In this document: positions 28,333 through 30,585 of the stretch, piece by piece
Position numbering within the stretch: the first letter of the stretch is position 1
Layout: every line of letters starts with the position of its first letter
DNA from: a virus
IMG/VR virus record: IMGVR_UViG_3300036851_000391
Location: 1 to 41,425 of that record
Reading direction: 5' to 3' (one strand)
Length of the DNA: 41,425 nt
Notes under the pieces: generated by a model
Database searches by the model: none
What the model was told of the DNA's origin: nothing
Seen by the model: only the letters and a program-made list of their open reading frames with translations
Made by a program: the position numbers and the translations under genes

Positions 28333-28526
28333 GGTCCGCGCCTCGCCTTGACCTTCATCTGAAATAGCTCCCACAACTGGGGACGCATCTTCGCCGTCCC
28401 CAGTTCCCAGTCCTGCCATGTGCGGTACGCGACTCCGATCAATTCGCCGGCTTCTTTTCGGGAAAGCCCAGCCGAGAGACGTTTCCGTTTGATCTCGGCC
28501 GGGGTTGGATTACCCGATGAAGGCAT
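28329..28526 (-). CDS. XRE-type helix-turn-helix regulator behind the Ro gene
   Basis: 65 residues from ATG 28526 (73 if the ATG at 28550 is used, which has AGGG upstream). RKRLSAGLSRKEAGELIGVAYRTWQDWELG is a typical Cro/XRE helix-turn-helix. It overlaps the end of the Ro gene and lies in the same transcript. It could autoregulate the operon through the palindrome in its promoter (30559-30577); this is a hypothesis from co-location. Confidence 0.65.
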   Translation of the reverse strand: MPSSGNPTPAEIKRKRLSAGLSRKEAGELIGVAYRTWQDWELGTAKMRPQLWELFQMKVKARRGP

Positions 28527-30153
28527 TGATGGCTTGCGGGAGCGACGCATCCATCCCTACGAAATTCATGCAACCCGCATCCTTCGGGTCGACCACACTT
28601 GACTCCGTCGCCGTGAAGGCGATGAACCCCAGCTTTAGCGGCCCGATCTCGCGCCGGTACGCCTGCAGCTCTGCTGCAGCATGCGTCGGCCCGGCCCACG
28701 TTTCGTTGTCCGTGTAGACAAGCACAGCGTCAGCCTGGACCTTATTCGCGCGCGCCCAGCGAATGGGGAGCGCGCAATCAGTCCCGCCGAAGTTCATACC
28801 ACGCGTCTTCGCGAGTACGTCATTCAGCGAGTCACGCTTCGTGATGCCAAGGTCGCGGAAGTCCGTCGCGAACCCGAAGGCCCAATACTGCGGCTCGGTT
28901 CGTACCGTGATGAGCGCCATCGCCGCAGCAGCCTCCGCCACGGTGATCGGCGACTCGTTCACGGTCATTCCCATGCTGCCCGAGACATCGATGCCGAGGA
29001 TGAAACGCTTGCCAGTCGGTGCCACGTTATGGAACGACAGATCGAACGCGTAGTCCAGCGCACCTGTTACCTGCGGAACCACCGTCCACGAACCAGATCC
29101 ACGGAAGCCTGATCCCTTCGCGTACGTGCGCGAGGCAAGCAGGACATGCCACGGATGCACGCGCGCCTTACGGATTGCTTCACCATCGGCCAGCTTCTCC
29201 TGCACGAACTTCGCCGCCTGAGAGAACGGCGTTAGCAAGCTACACTTCGACAGATTGCCGAGGTTACGGATCAGCGCCGTGTAGCCGAGGGACGGCAGGA
29301 GCGCTTCCCACACTTCCGCGCTCGACAACAGTTCGGTCGGCACGAACTCACGTTGCAGGCGAGTCTCCGCGATGATCTTCGCCGCCGTCTTTGGGTCCTT
29401 CTCATCACGCACGCGCAACCAGCCGTCCACGAACGGTGCCAGCGTGCGTACACCCTCCCATCCCGTGGCCACCGTCTGGCGTTCGGTCAGTGCCTTGCGC
29501 GCCTTCTGAGCGCGACGTTCCGCGCCGACTTCTGGCTCGCAGATCGCATCAAAGACCCGCTTGGTTGCGGCGTCCTGCGTGACAGGGTGCGTCAGGCGCA
29601 GCACGTCCCGATGGGAAACACCGTTGCGCTGCTGATACTTGATCGCCTGAAACGCGATGTCCTGCGCCGGACGGTCCATGTACCACTTCGAAATCGCCGT
29701 ACGGATACCACGGCCCCAGCCTCCGCCAAGTGCCTGCCGGTACTCCACGAAGGTGAAGAGGTGCGTGCCGATGCGGCACACAGCCGGCAGAGCCGCGAAA
29801 GCCGATTTGCGGGTCGCCTGATCGCCACGCACGGAGGCAAGTGCAAGCGCGAAGATGGCCGGTTCATTCTTCGGCGCCAGTCCCTTGTCGGAAATTTCAG
29901 CCGTCTCGCGCACGACTCGAGCGCCGTCCTGCTTGATGCAGTTCAGCACGACGTCAGCGTTTTCAATCGTGAGTTTCTTTTCGCTCGCGTAGTAGGTGCC
30001 GCCCTGGCTCCCGAGAATCAGGAAGCGCCGCAGACGAGACCAGTCGTCGAGTTCGAACACATAGCCGCCAGCCGCGTTCTGGATCATCGGTTGACCCGGC
30101 AACGGCTGCGACTGGGGAGTCTGGAGGGGAGAGAAGTGCTTCGCGTAGGTCAT
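28510..30153 (-). CDS. rsr: Ro60/Rsr-type RNA-binding protein (TROVE plus von Willebrand A domain)
   Basis: 547 residues with a perfect AAGGAGGT ribosome site. The N-terminal TROVE region (about 10-370) shows the Ro hallmarks: GGYVFELDDWSRLRRFLILG, GGTYYASEKKLTIENADVV, GIRTAISKWYMDRP and a HEAT-like helical ring. The C-terminal von Willebrand A domain has a complete MIDAS: DVSGS (Asp389, Ser391, Ser393), Thr458 in GGTD and Asp482 in YTDNE. Ro proteins form a ring that holds misfolded RNA ends and bind Y RNAs outside the ring; in bacteria they tether PNPase or assist RNA maturation. Length matches bacterial Rsr (about 530). It is the first protein gene after four Y-like RNAs, within one presumed transcript. 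No rtcA or rtcB is present. Confidence 0.95.
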   Translation of the reverse strand: MTYAKHFSPLQTPQSQPLPGQPMIQNAAGGYVFELDDWSRLRRFLILGSQGGTYYASEKKLTIENADVVLNCIKQDGARVVRETAEISDKGLAPKNEPAIFALALASVRGDQATRKSAFAALPAVCRIGTHLFTFVEYRQALGGGWGRGIRTAISKWYMDRPAQDIAFQAIKYQQRNGVSHRDVLRLTHPVTQDAATKRVFDAICEPEVGAERRAQKARKALTERQTVATGWEGVRTLAPFVDGWLRVRDEKDPKTAAKIIAETRLQREFVPTELLSSAEVWEALLPSLGYTALIRNLGNLSKCSLLTPFSQAAKFVQEKLADGEAIRKARVHPWHVLLASRTYAKGSGFRGSGSWTVVPQVTGALDYAFDLSFHNVAPTGKRFILGIDVSGSMGMTVNESPITVAEAAAAMALITVRTEPQYWAFGFATDFRDLGITKRDSLNDVLAKTRGMNFGGTDCALPIRWARANKVQADAVLVYTDNETWAGPTHAAAELQAYRREIGPLKLGFIAFTATESSVVDPKDAGCMNFVGMDASLPQAINAFIG

Positions 30154-30180
30154 AAGGACCTCCTTTGTTAGTGAATCAGA

Positions 30181-30271
30181 TCGGGCGTGGAATTGAAGTC
30201 GGATTAACTCCCTTGCGGGAGTCTTGGAGTCGAACCAAGTTTAACCAGATAACCAACCTCTGCCGGCCCGA
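30181..30271 (-). ncRNA. Y-like RNA 4, with T-arm and GNRA-capped acceptor helix
   Basis: Outer helix TCGGGC (30271-30266) with GCCCGA (30186-30181), internal loop CGGCA, inner helix GAGGTTGG (30260-30253) with CCGACTTC (30202-30195), then TTATC. Inside are a tRNA T-arm, CTTGG-TTCGACT-CCAAG (30239-30223), and directly after it ACTCCC-GCAA-GGGAGT (30222-30207), an acceptor-like stem with a GNRA loop. It lacks a D-arm, so it is a reduced version of RNA 2. It ends about 28 bases before the Ro start codon. Confidence 0.75.
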
Positions 30272-30279
30272 AACTCAAA

Positions 30280-30338
30280 GGGGCGTGGTTGTGAAACAGG
30301 GATGTCGATATGAGTGATAACCCTATCTCTCCGGCCCC
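30280..30338 (-). ncRNA. Y-like RNA 3, minimal form
   Basis: Outer helix GGGGC (30338-30334) with GCCCC (30284-30280), internal loop CGGA on the 5' side and ACAACCAC on the 3' side, inner helix GAGATAGGG (30329-30321) with CCCTGTTTC (30301-30293, two G-T pairs), then a loop starting TTATC. No tRNA-like part. It keeps only the presumed Ro-binding stem, like a stripped Y RNA. Confidence 0.7.
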
Positions 30339-30346
30339 AAAATCAA

Positions 30347-30475
30347 GATGGACGTGGTATGCCAATCGGGGTTTACGCGCTCTAACCAGCTGAGCTACCG
30401 GACCTCACGGCCCGAGGGAGAATCGAACTCCCGACCTCGTCCTCCGAAGGGATAACCGATTAACTCCGGCCCATC
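30347..30475 (-). ncRNA. Y-like RNA 2 with a complete permuted tRNA mimic (YrlA type)
   Basis: Outer helix GATGGGC (30475-30469) with GTCCATC (30353-30347), CGGA loop, inner helix GTTAATCGG (30464-30456) with CCGATTGGC (30369-30361), then TTATC. The inside holds in order: a UUCG-capped arm (30452-30440); a T-arm GGGAG-TTCGATT-CTCCC (30432-30416); an acceptor helix TCGGGCC-GTGA-GGTCCGG (30415-30398) closed by a GNRA loop instead of free ends; TA; and a D-arm GCTC-AGCTGGTTA-GAGC (30395-30379). It is a tRNA cut open at the anticodon arm and closed at the acceptor, as described for bacterial YrlA RNAs. Confidence 0.85.
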
Positions 30476-30482
30476 AATCTGC

Positions 30483-30547
30483 GGCGAACGTGGTGTGCTG
30501 CTTGGGTTATAACATTACAAGTGTTAACCAAACTGCTCCGGCTCGCC
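30483..30547 (-). ncRNA. Y-like RNA 1, at the transcript start
   Basis: Outer helix GGCGAGC (30547-30541) with GTTCGCC (30489-30483), CGGA loop against ACACCAC, inner helix GC-A-GTTTGG with CCAAGC-A-GC (one A-A mismatch), then TTAAC and a small hairpin TAACA-CTTGTAA-TGTTA. The predicted transcription start (about 30550) falls three bases before the outer helix, so the RNA 5' end matches the promoter. Confidence 0.7.
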
Positions 30548-30557
30548 TTTAAATCGA

Positions 30558-30585
30558 AGTATACGGACTCCGTATACGAACGCAA
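30558..30585 (-). promoter_or_regulatory. Promoter of the Y RNA-Ro operon with overlapping palindromic operator
   Basis: On the minus strand TTGCGT (30585-30580) and TATACT (30563-30558) are 16 bases apart. GTATACGGA-C-TCCGTATAC (30559-30577) is a perfect 19-base palindrome covering the spacer and most of the -10. A bound dimer would block RNA polymerase. The regulator is unknown; the XRE protein encoded in the operon is the obvious candidate. The upstream gene ends at 30609, so this promoter makes the operon independent. Confidence 0.7.

What the first reader, a model, noticed from the sequence alone, without database searches (positions are those of the whole stretch)
30181..30547. Tandem array of four Y-like RNAs with one common blueprint
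Each unit has an outer helix of 5-7 pairs, a 5' CGGA/CGGCA loop opposite a 3' strand ending CCAC, an inner helix of 8-9 pairs, then TTA(T/A). The outer helices differ completely in sequence (GGCGAGC, GATGGGC, GGGGC, TCGGGC) yet pair perfectly or with G-T, which is strong internal covariation. Linkers are 7-8 bases with TTGA/TTTGA-like U-rich sequence. Bacterial loci such as Salmonella have two Yrl RNAs; four in tandem, two minimal and two tRNA-like, looks like an expanded toolkit, each with a different cargo or partner domain.
Basis: seen in the sequence. Interest (0 to 1): 0.95.

Follow-up and report, generated by a model that had tools for sequence, protein, structure and literature searches.

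The report
Phage Ro60 gene with four Y RNAs
A temperate phage carries a gene for the RNA-binding ring protein Ro60 and, directly upstream, four small Y RNAs that share one Ro60-docking stem but carry different heads (one full tRNA mimic, one half tRNA mimic, two plain loops); such multi-Y arrays prove common in phages and bacteria and mostly unannotated.

Summary
The array is real. On the minus strand, four units (30547-30483, 30475-30347, 30338-30280, 30271-30181) lie head to tail with 7-8 nt linkers, and 27 nt lie between the last unit and the start codon of a phage Ro60 gene (28510-30153, minus). Covariance models built only from Y RNAs of other Ro60 loci find exactly these four units in the 41 kb, all on this strand (best scores 89, 46, 44 and 35 bits), so they are bacterial-type Y RNAs. 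Unit B is a complete YrlA (circularly permuted tRNA mimic). Unit D is a YrlA without the D-arm, keeping only T-arm and acceptor. A and C are minimal Y RNAs. The closest relative phage (Ro60 71% identical) has six or seven units, with compensatory changes in D. Four units is large but not exceptional: a scan of 170 other Ro60 loci found up to about ten, and published knowledge already has several Y RNAs near Ro60. Most likely mechanism: each processed unit binds Ro60 by its stem, and its head gates the ring or tethers a partner such as host PNPase. Only anatomy and homology are shown; processing, binding and partners are inferred. By-product: tRNA-ordered (non-permuted) Y-tRNAs in related loci.

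The parts
28510..30153 (-). Ro60 (Rsr) protein, 547 aa: TROVE HEAT ring plus vWA domain
   Evidence: Pfam TROVE 4e-42 and vWA_Ro60 4e-48; PDB D. radiodurans Rsr 2nvo 1.8e-114 and Xenopus Ro60 1yvp 3.7e-111; phrog_850 RNA-binding protein
30159..30165 (-). Shine-Dalgarno AAGGAGG of the Ro60 gene; the last Y unit ends 27 nt before the ATG
   Evidence: sequence
30483..30547 (-). Y RNA unit A (65 nt, minimal): outer stem GGCGAGC/GTTCGCC, CGGA, inner stem GCAGTTTGG/CCAAGCAGC, UUAAC, 3' loop ACACCAC
   Evidence: held-out model R3 46.1 bits, E 1.2e-7; fold z -3.3
30347..30475 (-). Y RNA unit B (129 nt): complete YrlA. Y stem plus permuted tRNA-like domain: T-arm 30432-30416, acceptor hairpin closed by GUGA 30415-30398, U8-A9, D-arm 30395-30379
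   Evidence: held-out model R2 89.2 bits, E 5.5e-20; Rfam YrlA 37.9 bits, below gathering 69; MFE shows these helices
30280..30338 (-). Y RNA unit C (59 nt, minimal): GGGGC/GCCCC, CGGA, inner stem GAGATAGGG/CCCTGTTTC, UUAUC
   Evidence: R3 34.9 bits, E 2.6e-5; R2 26.1 bits; fold z -2.9
30181..30271 (-). Y RNA unit D (91 nt): Y stem plus T-arm 30239-30223 and acceptor hairpin closed by GCAA 30222-30207, then UA and the inner 3' strand; no D-arm (top half of tRNA only)
   Evidence: R2 43.7 bits, E 1e-8, aligned with the D-arm deleted; orthologue with compensatory changes in L002; fold z -3.4
30476..30482 (-). linker A-B GCAGATT (possible processing site, inferred)
   Evidence: sequence
30339..30346 (-). 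linker B-C TTGATTTT, U-rich (possible processing site, inferred)
   Evidence: sequence
30272..30279 (-). linker C-D TTTGAGTT, U-rich (possible processing site, inferred)
   Evidence: sequence
30559..30577 (-). perfect 9-bp inverted repeat GTATACGGA-G-TCCGTATAC 11 nt upstream of unit A; operator or terminator candidate, role unknown
   Evidence: only copy in the window at up to 3 mismatches; none in shuffles; listed as terminator-like but such sites are near chance

Best explanation
A temperate phage carries a Ro60-Y RNA cassette: one Ro60 (Rsr) gene preceded, on the same strand, by four Y RNAs. Shown: each unit has the bacterial Y RNA docking stem (outer helix, CGGA opposite CCAC, inner helix, UUAUC/UUAAC), and the heads differ: two short loops (A, C), one complete permuted tRNA mimic (B, YrlA), and one T-arm-plus-acceptor half mimic (D). 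Inferred: the units are transcribed with Ro60 or from a common promoter, cut apart in the U-rich linkers, and each binds the outer face of a Ro60 ring by its stem. There the RNA gates access of other RNAs to the ring, and its head tethers Ro60 to a partner, for the tRNA-like heads most plausibly a host nuclease such as PNPase (RYPER-like), so that one Ro60 can be fitted with several adaptors during infection or lysogeny.
For: Ro60 domains and PDB homologues. The residues that I recall as important for RNA binding in vertebrate Ro60 (K170, R174, H187, numbered from memory) fall on K172, R176 and H189 of the phage protein in the HMMER alignment. Held-out covariance models, built without window or L002 sequences, find B, A, D and C and nothing else on either strand of 41 kb. 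The same RNA architecture is strongly tied to the Ro60 strand in 170 other loci: 319 hits on the coding strand, 7 on the opposite strand, 7 in shuffles (totals include the window), 247 of the hits at other loci upstream of Ro60. Compensatory changes in unit D of the nearest phage. Published Rsr-Y RNA-PNPase complex and tRNA-like YrlA (PMC8394870; PMC7790460).
Against: No expression, processing, binding or partner data. No PNPase-like nuclease (RNase_PH) or RtcB in the record, so any nuclease partner must come from the host. Rfam's YrlA model does not reach its cut-off for B (37.9 against 69), but it also reached it at none of 19 other Ro60 loci. No convincing promoter for the array.
Confidence: 0.75

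Rival explanations
1. The tRNA-like Y RNAs (B, D) serve mainly as decoys: Ro60-stabilised tRNA mimics without an anticodon that occupy host or defence enzymes that cut or modify tRNAs, protecting phage translation.
For: Two of four units carry tRNA arms. Hughes et al. 2020 propose that the YrlA tRNA-like domain, which is not cut, could competitively inhibit an anticodon nuclease (PMC7790460). Related phages place Y RNAs among tRNA genes (Trina, Blueeyedbeauty).
Against: Does not explain the two minimal units or the invariant Ro60 stem; no tRNA-cutting system was looked for in the unknown host.
Confidence: 0.2
2. The array acts in cis as a structured 5' leader of the Ro60 mRNA: Ro60 binding to the Y stems feeds back on its own synthesis or stability, and separate small RNAs are unimportant.
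For: Unit D ends 27 nt before the ATG, just upstream of the Shine-Dalgarno sequence.
Against: 58 of 315 units at other loci lie downstream of Ro60, and heads are elaborate tRNA mimics, which a leader does not need. Known bacterial Y RNAs act as separate RNAs.
Confidence: 0.1
3. An ordinary tRNA-Arg gene with degenerate neighbours.
For: ARAGORN calls tRNA-Arg(tcg) at 30407-30481.
Against: Rfam tRNA gives 18.3 bits, below the cut-off of 29, while YrlA scores 37.9 over the overlapping part. The call breaks up the T-arm/acceptor/D-arm order that R2 aligns at 89 bits.
Confidence: 0.01
4. Chance folding of GC-rich DNA, or helices on the plus strand.
For: GC-rich phage (61%) with many possible stems.
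Against: Top four of all hits and minus strand only; none elsewhere with held-out models; the array is less GC-rich (54%) than the phage.
Confidence: 0.01

Closest known systems
Bacterial Rsr-YrlA/YrlB loci (Salmonella rsr-yrlBA-rtcBA; D. radiodurans Rsr-Y RNA-PNPase, RYPER; M. smegmatis YrlA)
   Same: Ro60 gene with adjacent Y RNAs on the same strand; same docking stem; unit B has the full permuted tRNA-like domain
   Different: Four units instead of two; no rtcBA; unit D lacks the D-arm; carried by a temperate phage
Ro60 loci of actinophages and prophages (FuzzBuster, prophiGD43A-5, Trina, GMA2, BearBQ)
   Same: Phage Ro60 with several Y RNAs nearby; prophiGD43A-5 has four in tandem (L012 2193-2800), Trina seven
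   Different: Ro60 only 36-43% identical to the window's; Trina's and GMA2's units are partly interspersed with tRNA genes; the Y RNAs are not annotated as such in these records
IMG/VR contig 3300045020_000158 (L002)
   Same: Nearest relative: Ro60 71% identical; six units by scanner and a seventh by eye upstream of Ro60; orthologue of unit D
   Different: More units; weaker minimal units
Vertebrate Y RNAs (Y1, Y3, Y4, Y5)
   Same: CGA internal loop, UUAUC after the upper stem and a Ro60-binding lower stem (PMC4726728; Y1 details from memory); up to four Y RNAs serving one Ro60
   Different: No tRNA-like heads; separate Pol III genes; reviewers call bacterial Y RNAs highly divergent and not homologous (PMC4726728)

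Membership tests
Bacterial Y RNA | encoded next to a Ro60 (Rsr) gene, same strand | tested here: met
Bacterial Y RNA | docking stem: outer helix, CGRN opposite a 3' strand ending CAC, inner helix, UUAUC-like loop | tested here: met
   all four units; UUAUC in B, C, D, UUAAC in A
Bacterial Y RNA | helices kept by compensatory change in relatives | tested here: met
   unit D against L002; 40 homologous minimal units: outer helix 98% paired, all 6 pairs with two-sided changes (those units were chosen partly by pairing)
Bacterial Y RNA | discrete RNA bound by Ro60 | not testable with these tools
   needs RNA-seq and binding assays
YrlA (permuted tRNA mimic) | T-arm, acceptor hairpin closed by a loop, U8-A9, D-arm, in that order, inside the Y stem | tested here: met
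   unit B, R2 89.2 bits; unit D lacks the D-arm, so D is not a full YrlA; A and C have no tRNA-like domain
YrlA (permuted tRNA mimic) | Rfam RF02553 gathering score | tested here: not met
   37.9 against 69 bits for B; the model also reaches no unit in 19 other Ro60 loci, so it covers a narrow clade
YrlA (permuted tRNA mimic) | tRNA-type modifications (D, pseudouridine) | not testable with these tools
   reported for known YrlA (PMC8394870)
Ro60/Rsr protein | TROVE ring plus vWA domain with DxSxS MIDAS | tested here: met
   DVSGSM from residue 389 in the alignment
rtcBA RNA-repair operon | RtcB with Rsr and Y RNAs | tested here: not met
   no RtcB in the record
tRNA gene | tRNA model above cut-off | tested here: not met
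   RF00005 18.3 against 29 bits

The most novel reading that the evidence does not exclude
Phage and bacterial Y RNA arrays are modular adaptor sets for a single Ro60 ring: the docking stem is fixed while heads are swapped, trimmed (D-armless half-tRNA mimics such as unit D) and re-registered. Because the 3' half of one YrlA lies next to the 5' half of the following one, a shift of register in a tandem array could convert the permuted tRNA mimic (YrlA) into the tRNA-ordered form seen in related loci, or the reverse.
Probability: 0.3. Interest if true: 0.8.

Novelty: new variant of a known kind. Interest (0 to 1): 0.55.

Why it matters
Y RNAs are known as gates and tethers of Ro60, but what the different heads are for is open. 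Loci with one Ro60 and several heads, including a half-tRNA mimic, make that directly testable: delete or swap heads and see which partners and RNA substrates change. The survey also shows that the public tRNA and YrlA models do not annotate these RNAs, so much of the family is unseen.

Tried and rejected
Rfam gathering search of the window: nothing. tRNA-Arg call: rejected. Plus-strand reading: rejected. First, loose version of the motif scanner: too noisy; strict version missed loci whose closing pair is U-A or whose 3' motif is CUU instead of CAC; relaxed version with opposite-strand and shuffle controls used instead. RNAalifold structure for the 40 minimal units missed the inner helix because of alignment gaps; structure supplied by hand. 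Nucleotide search for close phages: only three weak hits inside Ro60. Other viral contigs with unit D's head sequence: only L002's contig. Search for a second copy of the palindrome: none. Primary papers on bacterial Y RNAs (Chen 2014, Sim 2018, Sim 2020) are not held; Chen 2013 and Wang 2018 were not looked up; statements about them rest on citing papers or memory. No structure prediction was run, since sequence homology to solved Ro60 was decisive.

Full report
WHAT IS THERE. The window is an IMG/VR virus record of 41,425 bases with portal, major head and other virion genes, a tyrosine integrase and an excisionase-like HTH protein: a temperate phage; its portal relatives infect mostly proteobacteria and a cyanobacterium. 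On the minus strand, between the late genes and the integrase module, lies a 547-aa protein with TROVE and Ro60-type vWA domains. Its solved homologues are Deinococcus Rsr (E 1.8e-114) and Xenopus Ro60 (E 3.7e-111).

THE UNITS. Read on the minus strand: A 30547-30483, B 30475-30347, C 30338-30280, D 30271-30181; linkers GCAGATT, TTGATTTT, TTTGAGTT. Each has outer helix - CGGA/CGGCA - inner helix - UUAUC (UUAAC in A) - head - inner 3' strand - loop ending CCAC - outer 3' strand. Vertebrate Y RNAs also have the UUAUC motif and a Ro60-binding lower stem (PMC4726728). B carries, inside the Y stem, a T-arm, an acceptor stem closed by GUGA, U8-A9 and a D-arm, the circularly permuted tRNA order of YrlA (permutation described in PMC11472068). 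D carries the T-arm and an acceptor stem closed by GCAA but no D-arm.

IS IT MORE THAN CHANCE? Three tests. (i) Minus-strand folds beat plus-strand folds for every unit. (ii) A motif scanner ranks the four units first on both strands of the window. (iii) Held-out covariance models: I aligned 26 YrlA-like and 40 minimal units from other Ro60 loci, leaving out the window and its nearest relative, built models R2 and R3 and searched the window. R2 gave B 89.2 bits (E 5.5e-20), D 43.7 (E 1e-8, aligned with the D-arm deleted) and C 26.1; R3 gave A 46.1 (E 1.2e-7), C 34.9 and D 26.5. Nothing else on either strand at E up to 10.

RELATIVES. The nearest Ro60 (71% identical) is in a viral contig, L002, with six units by scanner and a seventh by eye. 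Its unit at 2718-2810 is the orthologue of D: outer pair G-C became U-A, an inner pair G-C became U-A, the acceptor hairpin is rewritten but keeps a GNRA loop (GCAA, GAAA), and one G-U pair is lost. Across 170 Ro60 loci from phages, viral contigs and bacterial genomes plus the window, the relaxed scanner gives 319 hits on the Ro60 strand, 7 on the other strand and 7 in shuffles at the same threshold. Units are bimodal in length, about 60-80 and 100-140 nt. Clusters of two or more with gaps up to 25 nt occur at about a third of loci, clusters of four or more at a few per cent. L082 has ten by scanner and Rhodococcus phage Trina seven; the prophage prophiGD43A-5 of Mycobacterium abscessus has four in tandem. 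So the window is a large but not unique case. The 80 loci per collection are the best-scoring ones, many are cut by contig ends, and the scanner misses variants, so these fractions are rough.

HOW IT PROBABLY WORKS. Shown: anatomy, homology and position. From established work on other species: Rsr binds the Y stem, and the tRNA-like part of YrlA holds PNPase, making a degradation machine for structured RNA (PMC8394870). Inferred here: common transcription, cutting in the U-rich linkers, one Ro60 per unit, host PNPase or another host protein on the tRNA-like heads, and gating by the minimal units. The record has neither RNase_PH-type PNPase nor RtcB. The main rival is a decoy role against enzymes that cut or modify tRNA, raised for YrlA by Hughes et al. 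(PMC7790460).

WHAT IS NEW. From memory of its abstract, Chen et al. 2014 reported Y RNAs near Ro60 in more than 250 bacteria and phages, with at least one tRNA-like RNA per species; I could not read that paper. The window is therefore a member of a known kind. What I did not find described in the searchable literature is tandem arrays of four to ten, and D-armless heads (window D, L002, and a few others such as L098; L121 and L142 look alike by eye).

SIDE FINDING. In related loci a reverse-order scan found 40 hits on the Ro60 strand against 4 and 2 in controls. Some of these are simply junctions between tandem units. Eleven RNAs, however, are in normal tRNA order: acceptor, D-arm, Y docking stem closed by a short (4-5 nt) loop in place of the anticodon arm, T-arm, acceptor. 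The acceptor stem, which the scan did not select for, is 100% paired with two-sided changes at 6 of 7 pairs (the eleven were kept because their acceptor stems could be located and paired 7 of 7, so the changes, not the percentage, are the evidence). These are circular permutations of YrlA; a register shift within a tandem array would be a simple route between the two forms (inference).

Noticed in passing
L019 4756-4872; L091 4987-5119; L093 5198-5322; L103 6294-6420; L106 5625-5747; L131 5627-5748; L133 5682-5805 and 5816-5937; L135 3976-4098; L136 5499-5621; L159 2845-2963: Non-permuted 'Y-tRNAs': normal tRNA order with the anticodon arm replaced by a Ro60-docking Y hairpin closed by a 4-5 nt loop; acceptor stem with two-sided changes at 6 of 7 pairs. 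Not found in the searchable literature.
   Followed up: partly
L082 680-2975; L121 2296-5483; L008 (Rhodococcus phage Trina) 1612-2870: Very large Y RNA arrays: ten units or more, eight and seven; Trina's lie among its tRNA genes, and only one stretch overlapping them is annotated, as a 'tRNA-OTHER' pseudogene.
   Followed up: partly
window 30559-30577: Perfect palindrome GTATACGGA-N-TCCGTATAC just upstream of the array, single copy; operator or terminator candidate.
   Followed up: partly
window 30147-30161: AGGTC-CTTAT-GACCT hairpin overlaps the Shine-Dalgarno and start codon of Ro60 (minus strand); possible translational control.
   Followed up: no
L013 2289-2351: A long near-perfect hairpin (more than 20 bp) at the upstream end of a viral Y RNA/Ro60 locus, followed by two elongated tRNA-like genes.
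   Followed up: no
L011 (Gordonia phage GMA2) 4701-5112 and 5422-5478: tmRNA and a Pistol ribozyme next to Y RNAs, Ro60 and a large tRNA array; neither is in the record's annotation.
   Followed up: no
Rfam RF02553 (YrlA): The family model reaches its gathering score at none of 19 Ro60 loci rich in clear YrlA-like RNAs, so genome annotation misses most of them.
   Followed up: yes
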